NCBI GenBank assembly: GCA_947452365.1
Contig: CANGCO010000004.1
Location: forward strand, 1-64,000
Length of the DNA stretch: 64,000 nucleotides
Reading direction: 5' to 3'
DNA from: Caulobacteraceae bacterium
Lineage (GTDB): Bacteria; Pseudomonadota; Alphaproteobacteria; Caulobacterales; Caulobacteraceae
The first letter of the stretch is position 1; each line of letters opens with the position of its first letter. The position numbers and the translations under genes are program-made. The notes under the pieces are model-generated. The model made no database searches, was not told the origin of the DNA, and saw only the letters and a program-made list of their open reading frames with translations. Positions 12,082 to 24,666 of this stretch are shown here, piece by piece.

Positions 12082-13788
12082 CTATTGGTTAGTCTTGCCA
12101 CCGTCCGTGACGAAGCCAAGCGACGATTCCGCTGCGACACCGCCGCTAAGAATGCGTTGCTTGATCGCGACATTGTCCGAGCTGCCCTGGAAGGTAATCC
12201 GCAAGTCACCGCGACGGAAGTTACCAAAGCAGGTCGTCACAGCTAGCGTATCCACAAGCAGTTCCGCGCCAGGCGCAATGCCCGACAAGGCTGGCAAGGT
12301 GCCGACATTGGGGCCGCCGGTCCCGGTACAGGTGCGCGGTGTGCCCGCAACGCCATCAACCACGCTTGACAAGGTCAGGCTGATCGGACCGGTCGATGCC
12401 GTACCATTATTGGTCAAACGAATAACCGACGGGAAGGTTGCCACATTGCCGCTGATCCAGGGGGCGTCGACATAGGTCCCCTGCTGACCAATGATTTCCA
12501 GAGGATTGGTAACCGTCGGGCTTGGGTTCAGATAGGTCGCTGTAGCGGTTGGTTTGACCCGGGCCGCCAAGCTGATGACCTGAGGTGTCGAGACCTGGAT
12601 GCTGTTCCCAGCATTAACCGCCACGGTCACATTGGTTACCGCTAGACCCGTCGCCGAATCGGCTGCAGTGCCGGTAATGGTTTGTTGCAGCGCGCCTGTG
12701 GGGGCCGAGATTGTGACGCCGGTCACGACGGGGCGGAATGCGGCAAACGAACCGGAATTGGTAAAGGTCAATTCAGGCGAGATCAGCGGCTTAAGCGCAC
12801 CGTTAATACCCGCGAATGTCAACTTGGTCGCACTCTGGGTACCATTGGTATTGGTTGAGTTGGAGATGCCAGGATAGTTGGTGGCATTGTCTGTAAAATA
12901 GCCAGCCCTTACGCTACCAATAATGGCGTCGTAACCGGTGGTCGTGACAAGGCTGATATAGCTGGGTGAGGCCGAACCCGCTGCGGCAATCGCAAAGGAG
13001 GTCGGCAGTGTGCTCACACCCGTGACCACATTGCTGACCAGAACTTCGGTCAGGGCCCGAGGCTCGGCCAAGATGGTCGTTCCCGAGGCACCACCGGCAT
13101 AGGCTTCGTACAAAAGCGTGGTGGTGTTCAGGCGTTCAATCTTAACCGAAGCCGTCACTGTACCCGGCGTCGTGGCCGTAACCTTCCAAGGATTGGTCGC
13201 CGGGAAGCTTAAACGAACACCCGTCGGGGCATTCGTACCATTACACCCGGCCGTGCCGGTCAAGGTGCTATTGACCGTCACGTCAACCACAGCCGTGCTG
13301 GAACCGATACCGCCGCCCAGGGATAGGGTGGGGGAGCCGACAACGCATTCGGCCGTTGCTGGGGTCGCAACGACAGTCGAGAAGTTGGCCGAGGTCAGGG
13401 CGGTTGCAAAGGTTGGGGCCGCTGTGCCGCCCAGATCGAATGTGAAGCGGTAAGTATTGACCGTGGCAACGCCGATACCCGAGCCGGCCAGGAAGTTCTG
13501 GGTCAGGCTGGTATCCACGCTGCCGACGATCTGATTAGCCGAGGTTGCGGGGGTAGCGCTGGTCCAGTAGGCGCCGATGCTGGAGCCGCCGGGGACGCCA
13601 TAGAGGTCGCGATTGGCGGCAACGGTGAAATCGACGGCGTTGGAATAGATCAGACGATCGGTCGGCGTTGCTGTTTGCGACAGGTCAATAGACGAAATGC
13701 GCGCGCTGGTGATCTGTGCGGCATTAGCAGCGGTGGCTGCGAGCGAGCCAACCGCAATGCCGGCCAGCAGAATTTTCTTCATGTTCAT
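12082..13788 (-). CDS. Secreted protein of unknown function, candidate type II secretion substrate or surface protein
   Basis: I do not recognise this 568-residue protein. It starts MNMKKILLAGIAVG and has a clear Sec signal peptide with a probable AxA cleavage near residue 23. The mature part is very rich in Thr, Ser, Ala, Gly and Val, poor in Lys and Cys, with alternating hydrophobic and polar residues that suggest beta sandwiches. No catalytic motif, membrane anchor, LPXTG or autotransporter end is visible. AAGGGG lies 9 nt before the start, a long A/T-rich leader lies upstream, and a strong terminator follows, all of which fit high expression. It sits directly upstream of gspE on the same strand, so export through the neighbouring secretion system is an attractive but unproven inference. 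An S-layer-like or adhesin role is also possible. Confidence 0.8.
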   Translation of the reverse strand: MNMKKILLAGIAVGSLAATAANAAQITSARISSIDLSQTATPTDRLIYSNAVDFTVAANRDLYGVPGGSSIGAYWTSATPATSANQIVGSVDTSLTQNFLAGSGIGVATVNTYRFTFDLGGTAAPTFATALTSANFSTVVATPATAECVVGSPTLSLGGGIGSSTAVVDVTVNSTLTGTAGCNGTNAPTGVRLSFPATNPWKVTATTPGTVTASVKIERLNTTTLLYEAYAGGASGTTILAEPRALTEVLVSNVVTGVSTLPTSFAIAAAGSASPSYISLVTTTGYDAIIGSVRAGYFTDNATNYPGISNSTNTNGTQSATKLTFAGINGALKPLISPELTFTNSGSFAAFRPVVTGVTISAPTGALQQTITGTAADSATGLAVTNVTVAVNAGNSIQVSTPQVISLAARVKPTATATYLNPSPTVTNPLEIIGQQGTYVDAPWISGNVATFPSVIRLTNNGTASTGPISLTLSSVVDGVAGTPRTCTGTGGPNVGTLPALSGIAPGAELLVDTLAVTTCFGNFRRGDLRITFQGSSDNVAIKQRILSGGVAAESSLGFVTDGGKTNQ

Positions 13789-15312: not shown

Positions 15313-18300
15313 ATGCCGAGCGAGAATGAGCAGCGACTAATCCTTGTCCTTGGCATGCACCGATCGGGTACAAGCGCCATCACGCGGGGCCTACCCGTGC
15401 TTGGCGTCGATCTGGGGGAGAAATTATTGGCGACCGATATCGGTATTAATGACCGGGGCTATTGGGAAGACGCCGGCTTTGTGGACTTCAATATCGATCT
15501 GCTCGAGGCTGTCGGCCATGATTGGCACAGCCTGGCCCTGATACCGGACCAGGCCTGGCAGGCCCCGGCCCTCATGCAAAAGCGCCTGCCCGCGGTCGAA
15601 TTCTTACGCACACGCCTTGGCAATCATGCTGTGTTTGGACTGAAGGACCCGCGGATTGGTCAAACCCTGCCGTTTTGGCAAGACGTGTTTGACCATATGC
15701 GGCTCAAGGTCGGCTATGTGGTGCCGTTCCGCAATCCAGCCAATGTCGCGCGATCCTTGGCGCGGCTATACGGCTTTGAGCTGGAAAAGGGCTATCTGCT
15801 TTGGTACGCGCATATGCTGATGAGCCTAAGGGGAAGCGAGCAGGCGCCGCGGGTGTTTGTCGATTTCGACAAGATGTTGCAAGAGCCCGAACACCAACTG
15901 AAACGGATCGCCAAGGGGCTCGACCTACCGTTTGACCCACAAGGCGCAGCGCTTGCTGAATATAGGCAAGACTTCCTCGAAGCCGCCTTGCGGCACCATG
16001 ACTATCGCCTTGAAGACCTGCGGCTCGACCTTGCCACGCCCAAACCCGTAGCCGATCTGAGCGAGATCATCTTGGCCTTGGCGCATGATCAAAGGCCAGA
16101 TGATGACTCCATCCGGGCACTGACGCGCTTGCGGCATCAGGATCTGCTGCAACAGGACCGCGGTCTTGACCTGCTGCGTCGCTATGACAAGCGCGCCATT
16201 GACCTCAGCGAAAACCTGAAGACCGCCGCCGCGCACCTGAGCGCCCGCGACGAACGGGTTAGCCAGCTTGAACAGGCGCTTGGTGAGCGCCACGAACAGT
16301 TTGGTCAACTCGAACAGGCCCTGATTGAACGGCACGAACAGGTTCGGCAGCTCGAACAAACCCTTAGCGAACGCCATGAGCAGGTTCGGCAGCTCGAGCA
16401 TGCGCTTGCTGAGCGCCAAGACCATGCTGGCCGGCTCGAACAGGCGCTTGGTGAGCGCGATGAGCAGGTTTGCCTGCTCCAACAGACGCTTGTTGAGCGT
16501 CATGAACAAATAGATCAGCTTGAACAAGCCCTGCTTGAGCGCCACGGTCAGGTTGACCAGCTAGAACAAGCGATTATTGAGCGGCAGGGCGCGTTTAGCC
16601 AGATTGAACAGGCTCTTGATGCGCGCAACGAGCAGGTAAACCAGCTGGAACATGCCGTGGGTGCGCGGAACGAACAGCTAGTCCAACTTGAACAGGCCGT
16701 TAAGGCGCGCGATGAGACGATTGGCGCGCTCAAACAGACCGCCATAGACGATCGAGAGCAGATTGCGGGTCTGGAACAGGCCTTGGCCTTAGGAGGCGAA
16801 CAAGTCGCGCTGCTGGAGCGACTGATTGGCGAGCGGGACATAGAAATAGGCCAGACGCACATGATGCTCGCGCGCTATGGCGGCTTAAAGGTCCTTTCGA
16901 CGGCGCTGTTGCACAAGATTGCGCAACGTACGGGCCTCGAATACATCTATGCGGCGGTCAGCGTTAAAAAGCACTTGGTCCGCGCCAAACTCTTCGACCC
17001 GGCCTATTATCTTAATACCTATCTTGATGTGGCAAGGGCCGGTATTGATCCGTTCGAACATTATATGCGCCATGGGTGGCGAGAGGGCCGCAATCCATCG
17101 GCTGGGTTTTCTAGCCAGGCCTATCTGGCCCTGTATGGGGATGTGCGCCTAGGCGGCAAGAATCCGCTGATGCATTATATTCGGCACGGCCATAAGGAGG
17201 GTCGCTTCATCGAGACGGTTTCAGGGACAAGGATGCAGGTCCCGATTGCTCGGACCTATGGCCAAAAACTGGCTCAACTGCTGATCTTGCTGGTAAAGCG
17301 TCCCGGCCTTGGGCTCACCCTGCTCAAGGCTGCGACCCGCGGCAGTTTGGGCGCAACCGCGCGCTCGATCGTTCGGGCGGCGCAGCGTGCGCAAGCAGGT
17401 TTGCCCGCAAATTCATCGGTTCAGCCTGATGAATATGGGCTTATCCCGGCCCAATTCCTGAGCCAAGATTATGTCGACCCGGCCGTCGTGCCTTATTATC
17501 TCAATCCGGTATTATCTAATCCGCCGTCGCTCAAGCGGCGCGATATTGGGGTGCATATACATCTGTCGCAGCCCGATCTTGTACAAGATTGGATCCTGCG
17601 TTTGGCCTTTATACCCATGGCCTTCGACCTGTTCCTATCCATCCCGGACAATGCCGAAATCAGGGGGCTAGAGCAGGCCCTTGCCACAGCCCTGCCAAAC
17701 CTGCGCGACCTCATCATCAGGCCTGTGCCGGCAAACGGGGGGGCTGTCGCAGCCCTCATGATCGAGTTCGGCGGACGACTGGCAGATTATGATTATGTCG
17801 CCCACTTCCATACCAATTTTAGCCCAGCCGATCTGGATGGCCAGACCGCGCATGCGGCGGCCATGGACAGGCTGTGCGGATCGCTAAGCGGTGTGCAACA
17901 GGTCTTTTCGCTGCTCCAGAACGATGCCCGCATCGTCTATCCCGGCGCGCTAGCCGGTCGGCCTGATCTTGGCGCCTGGGCGCTCGACACCAGGTCCGTG
18001 TTCTTGGACAAGCTGCCAGACTTCGATCTTGAGGGTCTGCAGCGGGTTGAACCCGTCCATGGCATGATGTTTTGGGCCCGCGGCGTCTGCCTTGAGGAGT
18101 TTTTGGCCATACCGGCGCGCTATGACGAGTTTGTAGACACAAGCAGCGGCGGCGACACTATAGGCCAAACCCTCGGACGCCTTTTGGCCGCCTGTATTGG
18201 GCGCCATATGGGCCGGAGCTATCGGCTCGAATCCGCCGGACGAACCGAGCGGCCCTCTGTCTATTGCGAGACGCAACACGACTATTCGCGTCAGATTAAG

Positions 18301-20688
18301 CACACGGACATTAAGCTGCTGGCCTATTATCTGCCCCAATTTCACCCGACGCCGGAAAATGATGAATGGCACGGCAAGGGCTTTACGGAATGGCACAAGG
18401 TCGCCGCAGCAAACCCGCTCTTCTATGGCCATTACCAACAGCATGTACCCCACCCAGATATTGGGTATTATCATCTCGCCGCGCCCGAAGACCTAGCCAA
18501 GCAGGCCTTGCTTATGCAAAAGTCTGGGGTCCACGGGATGATATTTTATCATTACTGGTTCAGTGGTCGGATGATCCTGGAAAAACCAGCCCAGATGCTG
18601 CTGGATAATCCGCAAATCAATATGCCGTTCTGTTTTTGCTGGGCGAACGAAAACTGGACCCGGCGCTGGGATGGCAATGAGCGGGAAGTCTTGCTCGGTC
18701 AGACCTATTCGAGCCGAGATGCCAGGGCCTTTATTCGCTATCTCATCCCGTTTTTTAAGGATGAGCGGTATATCAAGGTCGGCGGGCGGCCAATGCTTCA
18801 TGTTTACCGGCCGTCTGACATCGAGGATTGTGAAGCCTATTTGTCGATTTGGCGTGAAGAATGCGAACGCCATGGCCTAAAGGCCCCCTATGTGGTCGCG
18901 ACCCTGGCGCGCGGCGCGGCCTCTCCCCGCGACTATGGGATGGATGCCGGGGTCGAACGAGTTCTCTATGACTGGACCGACGGAGCGGTTGGCGACATTT
19001 GCGATACCTTGCAGGCCTATTGGCCGCTCGATGGTGGCATGCTGGACTATGGCGAGGTCGCTGACCATTATATGAACAAGGCGCTCAATCCCGATTTCAC
19101 ACTGTTTCGGGCCCTGGTGCCCATTTGGGACAATACGGCGCGTTATGGCTCTCAGGCCCTTGGCCTTCACGGGTTCACGCCGAAAAAAATGCAGGCCTGG
19201 CTAGAGGCCTTGATGGCCTATGCCAAGGCAAGCCTACCATCCGACCGACGCTTTGTGGTCGTCAATGCCTGGAATGAGTGGGCGGAGGGCGCGCATCTGG
19301 AGCCGGATGTTCGCTTTGGGTATGGCTATCTGAATACGGTTGGCCGCGCCCTGTGTGATTATCGTTACGATTCGTCGGATTATGTTCAGATAAACCCAAA
19401 CCATGTTGTGCGGGTGACCCTTGAACCCGAGGTCCTAGGTCATCTCAATCGCGATCCCATAGTGCGGCGCAAGATGCTGCAATGTCTGGCCAATTCAACC
19501 GCCTTTAAGGTGTGTCGAATTCAGATCACGGATCCCGACATGGCTAAGGACCTAGCGGCCATAGGGATCGAGTGCGCCTTGCCCGACCAAGCTGATGCGG
19601 ATTTCGAGCTTGTTTTCAAGGCACCATACCTTTTTGGCGTTGAAGCGGTTGAACACATGCTGAAAATGGCGACGCGCTTTAGCGGGACGGTCGTGTCGGC
19701 CAGCGTCCTTAATGATCCTGACTATGTCCACGGGGATCGCGACCAAGGCCATTGCCCTAGCGGCCTCATCCTAGAGCCTGCGGGCCCGCATTTCAGTCAC
19801 CGGGCCTGTTATTCGGCTGCGTGCTTGCGCTTGCTGCCAGAGGGTGGACCGTCAGAACCGACAGATAAGGTCACAACCATTATTCGGTTGCACCGCCAAG
19901 GGAGCCCCGCCCTGCTTGAAAGGGCACTTTTATCCTTATTGACCCAGACAGGCTGCCGCGTCCAACCGCTCATAACCCTTCAGGATTTTAGTGATGACGA
20001 GGTCGCGCAGTTGCAGGCGTCCTGGGCTGCCATGCCCTGGGCGCAGGACTGCCAACCCATTATCAGGCGATATGCCTCCAAAGCGCAAAGCCCAGACCTT
20101 CGCTCGCTGATGATGAACGATGCATTGAAATCGATTGGGTCAGGTTATGTCGCCCTGCTCGACTATGACGACATTGTCTTCCCAGAGGCGTATCGCACCC
20201 TAATTGGGCAGCTTAAGGCCAGCGAAAAGGCCGTCAGCTTTGGGCGGGTCTATAGTGTTTATTTAGACGGTGTGAGCCAGAAAATCATTGAGCGGCACAA
20301 AACCTTTGTAGAAGGTCGTGGGTATCAAGAATTTTTGTGGAATAATCACGCACCCATTCACAGTTTCATGATGGATATTGGCAAACTAGACCTAACGAAC
20401 ATTAAATTCTACGATTTCATGAAATTCATGGAGGATTATTATTTCACTTTACAAGTGTTCACAGAAGATAATGTCGATTGGGACTCGCTAAAGACGAATG
20501 TGTTTGTTGGCGACTATACGCATTGGCGCGGTCTTGCGCGCAATACGGTGGCCGTCTCAGACGAGGCCGCAACCGCAGCCATCCTAACGGATGACCATTA
20601 TATTCGCTGCGAGGGTCGCATAAAGAGCCTGCAAAATCGGTTGCTTGCAGAGCTAAGGCGAAGATCGAGCGTCCAAGGCAGGGCTTGA
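15313..20688 (+). CDS. Giant multidomain glycan-assembly protein (sulfotransferase-like, coiled coil, RgpF-like, WbsX-like and GT2-like parts)
   Basis: The product has 1791 residues. Residues about 8-230 look like a sulfotransferase: GMHRSGTSAITRG is the 5-prime-phosphosulfate-binding loop, and FGLKDPRIGQTLPFW follows. Residues 315-510 are fourteen 14-residue coiled-coil repeats (QLEQALxERHEQ). Residues 561-632 hold two copies of the FDPAYYL..Y.DV...HY..HG..EGR motif seen in large polysaccharide glycosyltransferases. About 740-1000 resembles rhamnan synthesis protein F (VHIHLSQPDLVQDW, YDYVAHFHTNF). About 1001-1345 is WbsX-like, close to GH99 (AYYLPQFHPTPENDEWHGKG, FCWANENWTRRWDG, NAWNEWAEGAHLEPD). 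About 1518-1791 resembles a GT2 fold with LLDYDDIVFPEAY. No signal peptide is seen, so it is probably cytoplasmic. It most likely builds or decorates the glycan exported by the nearby ABC pair. The combination is unfamiliar to me. Confidence 0.82.
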   Translation: MPSENEQRLILVLGMHRSGTSAITRGLPVLGVDLGEKLLATDIGINDRGYWEDAGFVDFNIDLLEAVGHDWHSLALIPDQAWQAPALMQKRLPAVEFLRTRLGNHAVFGLKDPRIGQTLPFWQDVFDHMRLKVGYVVPFRNPANVARSLARLYGFELEKGYLLWYAHMLMSLRGSEQAPRVFVDFDKMLQEPEHQLKRIAKGLDLPFDPQGAALAEYRQDFLEAALRHHDYRLEDLRLDLATPKPVADLSEIILALAHDQRPDDDSIRALTRLRHQDLLQQDRGLDLLRRYDKRAIDLSENLKTAAAHLSARDERVSQLEQALGERHEQFGQLEQALIERHEQVRQLEQTLSERHEQVRQLEHALAERQDHAGRLEQALGERDEQVCLLQQTLVERHEQIDQLEQALLERHGQVDQLEQAIIERQGAFSQIEQALDARNEQVNQLEHAVGARNEQLVQLEQAVKARDETIGALKQTAIDDREQIAGLEQALALGGEQVALLERLIGERDIEIGQTHMMLARYGGLKVLSTALLHKIAQRTGLEYIYAAVSVKKHLVRAKLFDPAYYLNTYLDVARAGIDPFEHYMRHGWREGRNPSAGFSSQAYLALYGDVRLGGKNPLMHYIRHGHKEGRFIETVSGTRMQVPIARTYGQKLAQLLILLVKRPGLGLTLLKAATRGSLGATARSIVRAAQRAQAGLPANSSVQPDEYGLIPAQFLSQDYVDPAVVPYYLNPVLSNPPSLKRRDIGVHIHLSQPDLVQDWILRLAFIPMAFDLFLSIPDNAEIRGLEQALATALPNLRDLIIRPVPANGGAVAALMIEFGGRLADYDYVAHFHTNFSPADLDGQTAHAAAMDRLCGSLSGVQQVFSLLQNDARIVYPGALAGRPDLGAWALDTRSVFLDKLPDFDLEGLQRVEPVHGMMFWARGVCLEEFLAIPARYDEFVDTSSGGDTIGQTLGRLLAACIGRHMGRSYRLESAGRTERPSVYCETQHDYSRQIKHTDIKLLAYYLPQFHPTPENDEWHGKGFTEWHKVAAANPLFYGHYQQHVPHPDIGYYHLAAPEDLAKQALLMQKSGVHGMIFYHYWFSGRMILEKPAQMLLDNPQINMPFCFCWANENWTRRWDGNEREVLLGQTYSSRDARAFIRYLIPFFKDERYIKVGGRPMLHVYRPSDIEDCEAYLSIWREECERHGLKAPYVVATLARGAASPRDYGMDAGVERVLYDWTDGAVGDICDTLQAYWPLDGGMLDYGEVADHYMNKALNPDFTLFRALVPIWDNTARYGSQALGLHGFTPKKMQAWLEALMAYAKASLPSDRRFVVVNAWNEWAEGAHLEPDVRFGYGYLNTVGRALCDYRYDSSDYVQINPNHVVRVTLEPEVLGHLNRDPIVRRKMLQCLANSTAFKVCRIQITDPDMAKDLAAIGIECALPDQADADFELVFKAPYLFGVEAVEHMLKMATRFSGTVVSASVLNDPDYVHGDRDQGHCPSGLILEPAGPHFSHRACYSAACLRLLPEGGPSEPTDKVTTIIRLHRQGSPALLERALLSLLTQTGCRVQPLITLQDFSDDEVAQLQASWAAMPWAQDCQPIIRRYASKAQSPDLRSLMMNDALKSIGSGYVALLDYDDIVFPEAYRTLIGQLKASEKAVSFGRVYSVYLDGVSQKIIERHKTFVEGRGYQEFLWNNHAPIHSFMMDIGKLDLTNIKFYDFMKFMEDYYFTLQVFTEDNVDWDSLKTNVFVGDYTHWRGLARNTVAVSDEAATAAILTDDHYIRCEGRIKSLQNRLLAELRRRSSVQGRA
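16255..16842 (+). repeat. In-frame 42-nt tandem repeat (14 imperfect copies)
   Basis: The stretch encodes fourteen successive 14-residue units of the form QV.QLEQAL.ERHE, two heptads each, predicting a coiled coil. The units are diverged at DNA level but keep the 42-nt period without frame breaks. It lies inside the giant glycan gene between its sulfotransferase-like and glycosyltransferase parts. Copy number could vary between strains. Confidence 0.93.
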
Positions 20689-20865
20689 TAGCGAACTGGG
20701 TGTGGATTAGCTTGGCTGCCCGACATAGCCTCGGCACTTTAATTCCAGCAAGGTCGGCGACGCCGGTGACCTGTCCAATAGCGGCCTGGCTGGACGGGTG
20801 ATAGCGGGGATCGCAATGGCTCGGATAGGATGGATCATGGGCCAAGCCTATAGGGCAATGGCGTG

Positions 20866-23046
20866 ATGTTATCGCCAATCGCGCCAAGCCATCCCGTCGC
20901 CATTATCTTGCCGTTACATGATTGCCTAGACGTCACGCAGCCTTGCCTTATCGCAGCAATGCCGGGCGTTCTTGCGGTGCCAAACGCCAGGCTGTTTGCG
21001 ATTATTGACCCCAGCTGCGACCCGGCAATGCGCGACAGGCTTGAACAATTGGTCCGGCACTGGCCCGATCATTTGATTGTGCAAGAGGGCCCTGCCCAAT
21101 TAAGTCCTGGCCAGGCAGCGGGGCTGGCGCAAATAATCTGCCCAGATCATGATATTGTCGTCTTGAGGCCCGAGGCGATGGTGCCCGGCGATTGGCTAGT
21201 CCGATTGGTTGAAGACGCCTATTCGTACCCAGATATTGGAACGCTCATTCCCCTAACCAGTACCGCGTCCATTTGCGGCTTTCCATATCCGGGCATAGAC
21301 AATACCCGGCCCTTCAATCTCGATATTGAAGGCATGAATGCGGCCTTTCGAAACGATAGGCTGGCCTGTGTCGCGGCGCCGGCAACCGAAGGGGTATGCC
21401 TCTATATGCGGCGGGCCTGGCTGAACGCCATCGCGGATTTGGCATCGGGAATGGTCGAGTTTAGCGACCGCGTCGGGTCGGCCTCAAACGGGCTTAGCCA
21501 GGGCGGCAATTGGATAAATGCTGTAACGCCCAACCTCTATATCGGCCACCAGGGCACGCCTGAGCGTGATCAAGATCTTAGCCCCAAAGACCGAAATGGT
21601 CTGGCCGCCGTGCAAACAGACCCCCTAAGATCTGCACGGATATACCGGCATATTCGGCTGCTGGGCCAGGCCCCCGCCGCCAAGATCTTGCATGTTTCCC
21701 ATGCTATGGGCGGCGGAGTCAGCCAACATATTCACGAACTTGCGGCGCATTTTTCGCAGGAGGCGGCGCATATCCGCCTTTCACCCCATGGCGAGCAGGG
21801 CTTGGTACGCATTAGCCTGGGGATTGGTCCGCAGGCCGACCAGATCATTTTGCACCCACAAAAAGACCAGGCCGACCTAATCGGTTTGTTGAAATCAATC
21901 AGTATAACAGCCGTGCATATTCATCATATGATGGGTCTTGGGCCGGAGATTTTAGACTTAAGCGAGGCCCTCGGCGCAACCTGTCTGGTGACGGTGCACG
22001 ACTATTACGGTCTGGGCGGCAACATTACACTGACCGACCGTAGCGGGCGCTATCCAGGGCATTATTCGCCAAAATTGGGCAAGCCTGCGCGTCTTTTGCC
22101 AGTTGGACCGTCGCCAGCAAGCCTGCGGGCGCAGTTTCATCGTTTGGTAAATACCGCCGAAATGGTGATTTTCCCATCAAATGCGACAAGAATCATATTC
22201 GAACAGGCGGGCTTGCTGACGAATGCCTCTGTCGTCACCGCGCGCCATATTGAGCCCGCATCAAGGACGCAGATTGCGCCAAGGCGGTTCATTAAAAAGC
22301 CGATCTACAAGATTGGTGTTCTTGGCGCGATCGGTCGCGAAAAGGGCGCTGACCTTTTGCAGCAGGTTGCAAAACGCGCCAAGCGCCTAGGCCTTCCGCT
22401 GCGGTTTTGCCTGATAGGATATGCCAACAAACCCCTCCAGGCCGTTGAGGCATCGGGTCCGTATTCGCCGGAGGCCTTAGGGGGCTTAATTGAGGGCCAG
22501 AAGTTGGACCTGATTTTTTTTCCGGCCCAATGCCCAGAAACCTATAGTTACACCCTAAGTTCAGCCCTGGCCTGCGGGCTCGCCATTATCGCGCCTAATA
22601 TTGGCGCCTTTCCAGAGCGGTTATCGGGACGCGCCAACACGCTAATATTTGAACACCTAGCGTCCGTGGACAAGGTGCTGGCACAGATTACGGCATTTAT
22701 TGAGCGCATGGCTGATGGCCTGCCACAAACCGCGCCCCGGTTTGACGACGATGCGTGCCGACAAGATTTTTACATCAAGGACTATATTTCCATCGCATCC
22801 CGACGCGCCATAGACGCATCAGGCGGCCAAGATCCATACGAGAGATCTCAGCTCATTCGCTTAGCCGATCGGTCGGTCCATAGGCCTAAAGAATGGCGAA
22901 ACGCTTTAGCGCTTTGGATTTGGCGACTCTATACAAACCCCGCAATGCGCTGGATTGGTCTTCTTATCCCATACACAGTTTTGCGTTTCTTTAAGCGCGC
23001 ACTGACCCGTACCTCGATCCATGATCTAAATAAGACCAAGATCTAG
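20866..23046 (+). CDS. Two-domain glycosyltransferase (GT2-like N-terminus, GT4-like C-terminus)
   Basis: The 726-residue product begins HPVAIILPLHDCLDVTQPCL, like the first strand of a GT2 fold. The next 240 residues resemble a GT2 region with HDIVVLRPEAMVPGDWLVRL. From about residue 272 a GT-B (group 1) enzyme begins with KILHVSHAMGGGVSQHIHELA, then VHDYYGLGG, YKIGVLGAIGREKGADLL and the donor-site-like PETYSYTLSSALACGL. It would add sugars to a surface glycan in the cytoplasm. It follows the giant gene by 177 bases on the same strand and converges on the exporter genes. Start choice is ATG 20866 (or GTG 20863), with AGGG at 20852-20855. The substrate cannot be deduced. Confidence 0.82.
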   Translation: MLSPIAPSHPVAIILPLHDCLDVTQPCLIAAMPGVLAVPNARLFAIIDPSCDPAMRDRLEQLVRHWPDHLIVQEGPAQLSPGQAAGLAQIICPDHDIVVLRPEAMVPGDWLVRLVEDAYSYPDIGTLIPLTSTASICGFPYPGIDNTRPFNLDIEGMNAAFRNDRLACVAAPATEGVCLYMRRAWLNAIADLASGMVEFSDRVGSASNGLSQGGNWINAVTPNLYIGHQGTPERDQDLSPKDRNGLAAVQTDPLRSARIYRHIRLLGQAPAAKILHVSHAMGGGVSQHIHELAAHFSQEAAHIRLSPHGEQGLVRISLGIGPQADQIILHPQKDQADLIGLLKSISITAVHIHHMMGLGPEILDLSEALGATCLVTVHDYYGLGGNITLTDRSGRYPGHYSPKLGKPARLLPVGPSPASLRAQFHRLVNTAEMVIFPSNATRIIFEQAGLLTNASVVTARHIEPASRTQIAPRRFIKKPIYKIGVLGAIGREKGADLLQQVAKRAKRLGLPLRFCLIGYANKPLQAVEASGPYSPEALGGLIEGQKLDLIFFPAQCPETYSYTLSSALACGLAIIAPNIGAFPERLSGRANTLIFEHLASVDKVLAQITAFIERMADGLPQTAPRFDDDACRQDFYIKDYISIASRRAIDASGGQDPYERSQLIRLADRSVHRPKEWRNALALWIWRLYTNPAMRWIGLLIPYTVLRFFKRALTRTSIHDLNKTKI

Positions 23047-23107: not shown

Positions 23108-23854
23108 CTAGGGGTGCAGGTGGTCGGGAAGGTCTTGTATCGACCCAAAATAGCGCATTCTACCCTTTTCCAGAACCAACAACTTGTTACAGGTTGCCTG
23201 AAGCAAGGCGAAATTGTGGGACGCCAAGACCATGATCCGAGCATGACCGACCAGTTCGTTCATCCGGTCAGTTGCCTTTTGAATGAACTGCGTATCCCCT
23301 GCGCCCAACCATTCATCCATGATCAAGATGTCGGATTTGAAGCTTGTGGCTAGGGTGAAGATTAGGCGCGCAGCCATACCGGCCGAATAGGTTTTCATTG
23401 GCAGGTCGGCATAGGCCCCGAGCTCTGAAAACGAAATAACCTCTTCCATTTGCGCATTGATTTGCGCCGCGCGCATGCCGCGAAGTCGCGACATGATTTT
23501 AACATTTTCGACCCCCGTCGCCTCCCAGTCTATTCCATTGCCGATATCCAGCATCGAGGCCACCACGCCCGTCATCTGAACATTGCCGCGGGTTGGCTCA
23601 TAAACCCCAGCCAGCACCTTAAGCAGTGTGCTCTTGCCCGCGCCATTGTGCCCCAACAGGCCCAGCCGGTCACCGTCTTCTAGGCGAAAGCTAATCCCCT
23701 CCAAGGCATTGACATGGACGACATCATTATTACCGCGCAACAACCGTCCGCCTATGGCGAGGTTGATCATGGTGTGGCGCAAAGATTGAGCCCGGACCGA
23801 ATAGATCGGATAGATGAGTTGAACATCGTCCAGGCGAATAGTTGCAACTGGCAT
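23108..23854 (-). CDS. Polysaccharide ABC exporter ATP-binding protein (short Wzt/KpsT type)
   Basis: The 248-residue ATPase has Walker A GHNGAGKSTLL, the signature YSAGMAARLIF and Walker B ILIMDEWLGAGD. The YSAGM form is typical of polysaccharide exporters of the Wzt/TagH/KpsT group. The ATG at 23854 is chosen because it lies 17 nt after the permease stop; the longer frame begins within the permease gene. The protein stops right after the nucleotide-binding domain, so there is no C-terminal glycan-binding domain as in classical Wzt. It pairs with the upstream permease to move a lipid-linked glycan across the inner membrane. Confidence 0.92.
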   Translation of the reverse strand: MPVATIRLDDVQLIYPIYSVRAQSLRHTMINLAIGGRLLRGNNDVVHVNALEGISFRLEDGDRLGLLGHNGAGKSTLLKVLAGVYEPTRGNVQMTGVVASMLDIGNGIDWEATGVENVKIMSRLRGMRAAQINAQMEEVISFSELGAYADLPMKTYSAGMAARLIFTLATSFKSDILIMDEWLGAGDTQFIQKATDRMNELVGHARIMVLASHNFALLQATCNKLLVLEKGRMRYFGSIQDLPDHLHP

Positions 23855-23871
23855 ACGGCGGGGCTTTCCGA

Positions 23872-24666
23872 CTAGATCCAAAATGCAATACGGCGACGCG
23901 CAGCGGAAAAACTCACAAACCACAAGAGGAGCGAGCCTGCGAGAATAGAGAGCGCGACCAGCCAGGTGAAGTTTGGCACGGGCTGGCCCAAGAGTGGCGT
24001 CCGCATGATTTCAAGCAAATAATAGAGTGGGTTATAGAGCACGATCGCAGATTTAGGCCCAACCAGGGTATTGGGGTGCCACCAAACCGGCGTAATAAAG
24101 AACAAGATTTGCGCCAAAAAGGGCAACATGAATCTTAAGTCTCTGTAACGCGCGGACGCCATTGCGATGACGGGCGTTAAGGCGAGCACGACCAAGGTCA
24201 GAACGATCACGCCTGGAATGATTTGCCAATTTGGCAGTTGCGGATTGCCAACAAAAAACGTCAAGGCAACGAATACAACAAGGTTATGCGCAAAAATAAA
24301 CAATGAGCGCATTGTGAATCTCAGCACATAAAACATGAACGGAAAAGCATTGTTGCGGATCGCCCCCTGAGAGGTGACGAAAAGGTCCGGCGCCTCGACC
24401 ACTAATGGGGCGATGAAATGGATCCAAACCAAGATCCCGCCCACAGCGAATGGCAAAAAGTCATGCAGGCTTTGTCCGGATATTGCACCCCAAGACACTG
24501 AAATCGCGAGCGATGTCGCGATCATACCGCCCGCGACCCATAAGGGTCCGAGAATGGACCTCCGGTAGCGCGATATGACGTCTTGCCAGGCCATATAGGT
24601 CCAGACGTGCCAGAGGCCTAGGGCACGGCCAAGATCATTGAGGGCCATTCGCATTTGGAAAAACAT
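23872..24666 (-). CDS. Polysaccharide ABC exporter permease (Wzm type, ABC-2)
   Basis: The 264-residue integral membrane protein has about six hydrophobic segments. It carries the ABC-2 family start WQDVISRYRRSILGPLWV, in which a short amphipathic segment (RYRRSxLGPxW) precedes the first helix, and RYRDLRFMLPFLAQILFFITPVWW in the loop between helices. These are the marks of Wzm/TagG/KpsM-type exporters. It starts the two-gene exporter unit that converges on the glycosyltransferase genes. The cargo is unknown but is probably the glycan built by them. Confidence 0.92.
   Translation of the reverse strand: MFFQMRMALNDLGRALGLWHVWTYMAWQDVISRYRRSILGPLWVAGGMIATSLAISVSWGAISGQSLHDFLPFAVGGILVWIHFIAPLVVEAPDLFVTSQGAIRNNAFPFMFYVLRFTMRSLFIFAHNLVVFVALTFFVGNPQLPNWQIIPGVIVLTLVVLALTPVIAMASARYRDLRFMLPFLAQILFFITPVWWHPNTLVGPKSAIVLYNPLYYLLEIMRTPLLGQPVPNFTWLVALSILAGSLLLWFVSFSAARRRIAFWI

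What the first reader, a model, noticed from the sequence alone, without database searches (positions are those of the whole stretch)
15313..20688. One protein combining sulfotransferase-like, coiled-coil, RgpF-like, WbsX-like and GT2-like parts
The 1791-residue protein carries at least four glycan-related modules plus paired FDPAYYL-HY-EGR motifs. The modules are known singly or in pairs, but this order is unfamiliar to me. A single assembly-line enzyme for a sulfated or modified glycan is an attractive idea.
Basis: partly seen in the sequence, partly recalled or inferred. Interest (0 to 1): 0.7.

Follow-up and report, generated by a model that had tools for sequence, protein, structure and literature searches.

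The report
Probable sulfate-capping, length-measuring sugar-chain polymerase
This single bacterial protein appears to build a surface sugar chain, use a long coiled rod to measure it, and stop growth by adding a sulfate cap; the overall plan is known, but a sulfate-adding cap enzyme in it was not found in the papers searched.

Summary
The 1791-residue ORF is real and its module order holds: sulfotransferase, coiled coil, FDP repeat pair, RgpF module, WbsX barrel, GT-A glycosyltransferase. It is not unique: one congener (83% identity) and five named Pseudomonadaceae and Burkholderiales genomes carry the same order (two lack FDP). In those five, Wzm and Wzt with cap-binding Wzt_C lie directly upstream; four also carry an APS kinase, which makes the sulfate donor. 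In Falsiroseomonas a methyltransferase replaces the sulfotransferase ahead of the same coil and polymerase.

Best reading: a chain-terminating polymerase like WbbB/WbdD, in which the N-terminal enzyme caps the chain, the coil is the ruler and C-terminal modules polymerise, here with sulfate as the probable cap. Coil length between two pairs of near orthologs differs by whole heptads (35 and 14 residues). WbsX has a GH99 hydrolase fold with an E-x-x-E pair in 60 of 60 rows.

Against: the window's own genome has no Wzt_C domain, so cap-checked export is not supported there; no activity is shown. "Assembly line" is partly right. New variant of a known kind.

The parts
15313..20688 (+). whole ORF, 1791 aa multimodule protein (P0001)
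   Evidence: full-length ortholog in G004 at 83% identity
15328..16017 (+). sulfotransferase module, residues 6-235; motifs GMHRSGTS (14), KDPR (111), RNP....S (140-148)
   Evidence: profile vs PDB E 7.6e-8; fold Z 15.5 to TPST1; G14, R17, S18, G19, S21, K111, R140, S148 in 23 of 23 rows
16105..16875 (+). coiled-coil rod, residues about 265-521; 42-bp/14-residue tandem repeats at 16252-16710
   Evidence: TRF, periodicity, predicted helices 265-368, 380-493, 497-521
16978..17229 (+). FDP repeat pair (FDPAYYL..DV..HY..EGR), residues 556-639
   Evidence: no Pfam or NCBIfam match there; own HMM finds it in 53 ORFs; pLDDT about 96
17257..17394 (+). helical linker, residues 649-694, possibly membrane-associating
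   Evidence: predicted helices 649-662, 664-675, 679-694; membrane role is inference
17518..18207 (+). RgpF-like module, residues 736-965
   Evidence: PF05045 E 1.4e-10; alternating strand/helix model; fold not searched alone
18304..19362 (+). WbsX module, GH99-like barrel, residues 998-1350
   Evidence: PF14307 E 5e-119; Z 23-25 to GH99-type structures; dN/dS 0.028
19276..19287 (+). E1322-W-A-E1325, candidate GH99-type acid pair
   Evidence: both Glu in 60 of 60 WbsX rows; equivalence to GH99 E333/E336 inferred from spacing
19375..19842 (+). linker module ('post'), residues 1355-1510, shared by close orthologs only
   Evidence: own HMM matched in 11 ORFs
19855..20646 (+). C-terminal GT-A glycosyltransferase, residues 1515-1778; LDYDD 1616, MEDYY 1706
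   Evidence: alignment A3; fold Z 14-15 to CgT, TarP, RmlT; dN/dS 0.055
20863..23046 (+). downstream GT4-type glycosyltransferase gene, 727 aa, 174 bp after the ORF
   Evidence: PF13439/PF00534 just below cut-off; synteny with G004 at 67% identity
23108..23923 (-). Wzt-like ABC ATPase, 271 aa, without Wzt_C
   Evidence: PF00005; no Wzt_C in the whole genome
23872..24666 (-). Wzm-like ABC permease
   Evidence: PF01061 E 9.7e-6, just below cut-off; PDB 9qfx O-antigen/LPS transport permease E 1.8e-40

Best explanation
The protein is a one-chain polymerase with its own ruler and chain terminator for an ABC-transporter-exported surface polysaccharide (O antigen type). Inferred steps: the C-terminal RgpF-like module, WbsX barrel and GT-A module extend a lipid-linked glycan at the cytoplasmic membrane. 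The coiled coil (about 225-250 residues, roughly 33-38 nm at 0.15 nm per residue) holds the N-terminal sulfotransferase away from the polymerase. Once the chain is long enough to reach it, the sulfotransferase transfers sulfate from PAPS to the non-reducing end and growth stops. In relatives with Wzt_C the capped chain is then selected for export; in this genome the transporter has no Wzt_C, so the cap would end growth without being checked by that domain. Shown here: modules, predicted folds, coil, gene neighbourhood, swap of the terminator domain. Inferred: catalysis, sulfate as cap, ruler function.
For: (1) Sulfotransferase fold with PAPS-site motifs (names recalled) conserved in 23 of 23 rows. 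(2) Long coil directly after it; of 32 ST-first ORFs of 700 aa or more in my loci, 27 have a proline-free run of 100 or more after the ST, 31 of 32 exceed same-length segments elsewhere in the same protein at p<0.05, and all 32 are richer in E/K/R/Q there. (3) Coil length differs between near orthologs by whole heptads: window against G004 35 residues, P. koreensis against P. sputi 14 (linker lengths 321/286 and 175/161). (4) All 5 named same-order orthologs have Wzm and Wzt+Wzt_C directly upstream. (5) 4 of those 5 have an APS kinase in the locus, standalone and directly downstream in the two Pseudomonas; the window genome has one APS kinase. (6) Terminator swap: Falsiroseomonas has Methyltransf_24-coil-FDP-RgpF-WbsX-GT2 beside Wzm/Wzt_C; among 28 of the 35 non-ST WbsX proteins with long N-termini, 10 match methyltransferase models, and two Planctomycetota carry another family, Sulfotransfer_2, in that slot. 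(7) Polymerase swap: ST-coil precedes GT2+GT4 modules in congeners G003 and G006. (8) Split form on Paracoccus plasmid pLM20P4: ST-coil gene, 42 bp, then GT gene. (9) The published plan is the same (PMC11231755, passages).
Against: No Wzt_C domain anywhere in the window's genome (97.75% complete), so cap-gated export is not supported in this organism; Vibrio cholerae O1 is a published precedent for a terminal methyl group with a CBM-less transporter (PMC10629545, passages). The ABC genes here are convergent, not in one operon with the ORF. Only 12 of 19 ST+WbsX ORFs in the named loci have a Wzm-like gene within 8 kb, against 25 of 72 other WbsX ORFs (Fisher p 0.035; 8 of 10 against 20 of 43, p 0.08, with flanks of 6 kb or more). 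These HMMs were built partly from the same loci and orthologs are not independent. The coil is shorter and less periodic in the Pseudomonadaceae MAG (p 0.066), and Pusillimonas is the one of 32 that does not pass the proline-free control (p 0.12). Aeromonas salmonicida has a sulfotransferase gene between wzt and wbbB, yet its authors report no sulfate in the O antigen (PMC4483657, passages). No glycan structure is available.
Confidence: 0.6

Rival explanations
1. Assembly-line reading: the sulfotransferase decorates every or many repeat units as they are made, and the coil is only a spacer.
For: In the sulfated capsule of Vibrio KMM 8419 sulfate is on the repeat-unit rhamnose (PMC11641403, passages), and PAPS-making genes sit in that cluster as they do near the orthologs here.
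Against: The sulfotransferase is held far from the polymerase by a rod that varies in whole heptads; the slot is shared with methyltransferases, as in known terminators; Wzt_C lies next to it in all 5 named orthologs.
Confidence: 0.2
2. The sulfotransferase fold is no longer catalytic and serves as a binding or scaffolding domain.
For: Pfam scores are below cut-off.
Against: Motif residues are invariant in 23 of 23 rows, module dN/dS is 0.12, and an APS kinase is in the locus of 4 of 5 named orthologs.
Confidence: 0.1
3. The protein makes a glycan unrelated to O antigen, for example a glycan added to secreted proteins or an exopolysaccharide; the nearby T2SS genes would then matter.
For: T2SS genes and a cell-wall hydrolase lie upstream, and window T2SS secretin and pilin-type genes have homologs near the L074 and L126 loci; no KpsC/S in the genome and only one Wzy_C-type protein.
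Against: No T2SS gene was among the neighbours scanned in P. koreensis or Delftia, whereas Wzm/Wzt and nucleotide-sugar genes were; an O-antigen-ligase-type (Wzy_C) protein exists.
Confidence: 0.1

Closest known systems
WbbB of Klebsiella pneumoniae O12 (Kdo terminator, coiled coil, two GTs in one chain)
   Same: N-terminal terminator, coil, C-terminal polymerase in one polypeptide; ABC-transporter pathway (PMC11231755, passages)
   Different: Terminator is a Kdo transferase, not a sulfotransferase; no WbsX/GH99 barrel or FDP repeat is described in the passages seen
ORF6 of K. pneumoniae O7 (methyltransferase-kinase, coil, two GT2 modules)
   Different: Methylphosphate cap; GT2 modules only
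WbdD/WbdA of E. coli O9a
   Same: Terminator plus coiled-coil ruler, cap read by Wzt (PMC3482155, passages; ruler)
   Different: Polymerase is a separate protein; methylphosphate cap
Falsiroseomonas homolog L071 (MT-coil-FDP-RgpF-WbsX-GT2)
   Same: Same coil and polymerase half, Wzm/Wzt_C next to it
   Different: Methyltransferase in place of sulfotransferase
GH99 endo-alpha-mannosidase/mannanase
   Same: Fold of the WbsX module, Z 23-24, and E-x-x-E spacing
   Different: GH99 enzymes cleave; WbsX sits inside a biosynthetic protein; 14-16% identity, not found by sequence
Pseudomonas koreensis, P. sputi, Pseudomonadaceae MAG, Delftia and Pusillimonas same-order proteins
   Same: Same module order (FDP absent in Pusillimonas and Delftia)
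   Different: 41-48% identity in the best segment; Wzt_C present; linker between ST and next module 161-218 residues except Delftia 320, against 321 here

Membership tests
[quoted passage not shown]
   sulfotransferase fold at residues 6-255, then helix from 265; capping itself not shown
WbbB/WbdD-type coiled-coil chain terminator-polymerase | extended coiled coil between terminator and polymerase | tested here: met
   14-residue repeats and heptad periodicity, predicted helix
WbbB/WbdD-type coiled-coil chain terminator-polymerase | polymerising glycosyltransferase modules in the same chain or complex | tested here: inconclusive
   one clear GT-A module by fold; RgpF-like module by Pfam; WbsX is a GH99-like barrel; activity not testable
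WbbB/WbdD-type coiled-coil chain terminator-polymerase | genes linked to a Wzm/Wzt ABC exporter | tested here: met
   window 23108-24666; directly upstream in 5 of 5 named same-order orthologs
WbbB/WbdD-type coiled-coil chain terminator-polymerase | cap stops elongation and coil length sets chain length | not testable with these tools
   needs biochemistry or LPS gels
Cap-gated (CBM-containing) Wzt export system | Wzt_C carbohydrate-binding domain that reads the cap | tested here: not met
   PF14524 absent from the window's genome; present in all 5 named same-order orthologs and Falsiroseomonas. The window system is therefore not filed as cap-gated
PAPS-dependent sulfotransferase | 5'- and 3'-phosphate binding motifs (names recalled) and fold | tested here: met
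PAPS-dependent sulfotransferase | sulfotransfer activity | not testable with these tools
   needs an enzyme assay
WbsX (PF14307) | profile match over curated cut-off | tested here: met
   398 bits, cut-off 25.1
GH99 | fold and catalytic acid pair | tested here: inconclusive
   fold Z 23-25 and E-x-x-E in 60/60 rows, but no sequence match to GH99 and residue equivalence not checked
RgpF (PF05045) | profile match over curated cut-off | tested here: met
   40.9 bits, cut-off 25, C-terminal half of model only
GT2 (PF00535) | profile match over curated cut-off | tested here: not met
   20.2 bits, cut-off 23.3 in the window protein; 25.5 in Delftia; filed as GT-A fold, not as a GT2 member

The most novel reading that the evidence does not exclude
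Sulfate is a further, widespread class of O-antigen terminator that arose at least twice (the type found here, and Sulfotransfer_2 in Planctomycetota) and is swapped with methyltransferases on a shared coil and polymerase, and the WbsX barrel is a hydrolase-fold enzyme that works in synthesis as a cytoplasmic transglycosylase or chain editor inside the polymerase.
Probability: 0.2. Interest if true: 0.8.

Novelty: new variant of a known kind. Interest (0 to 1): 0.6.

Why it matters
The caps named in the papers seen are methyl, methylphosphate and Kdo, with pyruvate as a candidate. A sulfate cap would add a charged, sulfated chain end to this list and predict sulfate-reading Wzt_C domains in Pseudomonas and Delftia that can be tested at once. 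The coil's tandem 14-residue repeats give natural length variants of a ruler. It also makes the unsolved role of WbsX (GH99 fold in a biosynthetic protein) directly testable.

Tried and rejected
Unique fusion or assembly artefact: rejected; a congener and five named genomes carry the order in one ORF. Phage or plasmid cargo: 152 plasmid records match parts but none covers 80%; the 11 viral-contig hits matched by WbsX only in the module search, though the profile search also finds RgpF in L031 and L034. Recombination as cause of the 97% identical WbsX module: its dS (0.59) is like that of other modules and dN/dS is 0.028, so purifying selection explains it. KpsMT capsule: no KpsC/S in the genome. 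Sequence search of the polymerase half against PDB gave nothing useful. A strict coil threshold (power 1.5 or more and p<0.01 in a 56-residue window) passed only 6 of 33 large ST ORFs; the proline-free and charge test was used instead, made after seeing that result and with one ORF dropped because its ST is not N-terminal. Literature: 10 searches listed no paper that I could see describing a sulfotransferase terminator; this is an open-access library, subscription papers were not searched, and three papers looked up by id were not held.

Full report
Observation. RgpF and WbsX pass Pfam's cut-offs; sulfotransferase and GT2 do not in this protein. Both weak calls were resolved: a 26-sequence profile of the N-terminal part finds sulfotransferases in the PDB (best E 7.6e-8), the predicted structure matches tyrosylprotein sulfotransferases (Z 15.5, rmsd 3.9 A, 212 aligned), and the C-terminal module matches GT-A enzymes CgT, TarP and RmlT (Z 14.6-14.9). 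The WbsX module matches a glycoside-hydrolase-like protein 5ngw (Z 25.4, 3.1 A, 292 aligned), human MANEA (Z 23.7) and BtGH99 (Z 23.3).

Anatomy. Residues 6-235 sulfotransferase; about 265-521 coiled coil; 556-639 FDP repeat pair; 649-694 helices; 736-965 RgpF-like; 998-1350 WbsX; 1355-1510 linker; 1515-1778 GT-A. The coil is built of 14-residue units of the form QLEQALxERHEQVx from about 304 to 513 (TRF 42-bp units), with no proline over 294 residues. Model confidence is about 95 for the sulfotransferase and the FDP pair, lower in the coil.

Selection. Against the 83% identical congener protein (G004), dN/dS is 0.12 for the sulfotransferase, 0.028 for WbsX, 0.055 for the GT and 0.32 for RgpF. 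The linker of these two differs by 35 residues, five heptads; that of P. koreensis and P. sputi by 14. Two pairs are few, and heptad-sized indels are usual in coiled coils.

Distribution. In 60 related genomes, 29 have some match but only G004 a full-length one; in the genus, 2 of 7 genomes including the window's own. Of 152 plasmid records with a match none covers 80%; the best, Desulfolutivibrio plasmid p1, has RgpF-WbsX-GT2 in one gene and sulfotransferases as separate genes.

Neighbourhood. In all 5 same-order named orthologs Wzm and Wzt with Wzt_C lie directly upstream. An APS kinase lies in 4 of 5 loci: standalone and directly downstream in P. koreensis and P. sputi, and within 629-631 aa proteins further off in Delftia and Pusillimonas. 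Across the 80 loci an APS kinase lies within 8 kb of 4 of 19 ST+WbsX ORFs against 2 of 72 other WbsX ORFs (Fisher p 0.016), but the four are orthologs. In the window the ABC pair is downstream and convergent, and the ATPase lacks Wzt_C; no Wzt_C was found in the genome. One APS kinase was, KpsC/S were not, and one Wzy_C-type protein was.

Domain swapping. Falsiroseomonas L071 has Methyltransf_24 (E 2.3e-23) in place of the sulfotransferase, followed by coil, FDP, RgpF, WbsX and GT2, and divergent Wzm/Wzt_C. Of ten scanned singly, L108, L136, L137 and L078 have methyltransferases, L143 and L144 Sulfotransfer_2, L127 and L131 DUF4915, L079 a sulfatase, and L122 only glycosyltransferase matches. 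Conversely the ST-coil half is joined to other glycosyltransferases in G003 and G006, and it is a separate gene before an FDP-bearing gene on Paracoccus plasmid pLM20P4 (glycosyltransferase by Pfam) and in G040. Of 32 ST-first ORFs of 700 aa or more, 27 have 100 or more proline-free residues after the ST; some were retrieved with a query that includes the coil, so this is not a blind sample.

Mechanism. In K. pneumoniae O12 WbbB and O7 ORF6, a terminator at the far end of a coiled coil caps chains made by C-terminal GT modules, and the coil acts as ruler (PMC11231755, abstract and passages; WbdD, PMC3482155, passages). The caps named in the sources seen are methyl, methylphosphate and Kdo (PMC9445017, passages), with pyruvate as a candidate (PMC10629545, passages). 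The present protein fits this plan with a sulfotransferase as terminator. In the window organism the absence of Wzt_C means the cap would not be read at export by that domain; V. cholerae O1 is a published case of a terminal modification with a CBM-less transporter. The main rival is sulfation of internal units.

WbsX. Pfam calls it a glycosyltransferase; the fold is GH99-like and E1322 and E1325 are present in 60 of 60 aligned rows. GH99 structures are listed as E333Q and E336Q variants, the same spacing; one-to-one equivalence was not checked. Why a hydrolase fold is the most constrained part of a synthetic protein is open.

Novelty. Ten literature searches in the open-access library listed no sulfotransferase terminator that I could see (calls under Tried and rejected). 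Databases already name homologs 'glycoside hydrolase family 99-like domain-containing protein'. I rate it a new variant of a known kind.

Noticed in passing
window 16978-17229; also L045 9492-13391, L050 14332-18279 and others: The FDP repeat (FDxxYYL..DV..HY..G..EGR) is widespread (53 ORFs in my loci), folds confidently, and drew no Pfam or NCBIfam match in P0001.
   Followed up: partly
L079:7571-14416: A Methanoperedenaceae archaeon protein of 2281 aa has a sulfatase domain (PF00884) at the N-terminus ahead of WbsX.
   Followed up: no
L143:6949-11628, L144:1525-6186: Planctomycetota WbsX proteins carry Sulfotransfer_2 in the N-terminal slot, another sulfotransferase family.
   Followed up: partly
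L127:3166-8391, L131:6977-11083: DUF4915 lies in the N-terminal part of these WbsX proteins; a possible unknown terminator.
   Followed up: no
window 12082-13788 (-): 568-aa secreted-looking protein without Pfam match next to T2SS genes; only 56% identical in the congener while T2SS neighbours are 94%.
   Followed up: no
Aeromonas salmonicida wbsalmo ORF19 (PMC4483657; not in the window or a locus): A published sulfotransferase-like ORF lies between wzt and wbbB and was left unexplained by its authors.
   Followed up: no
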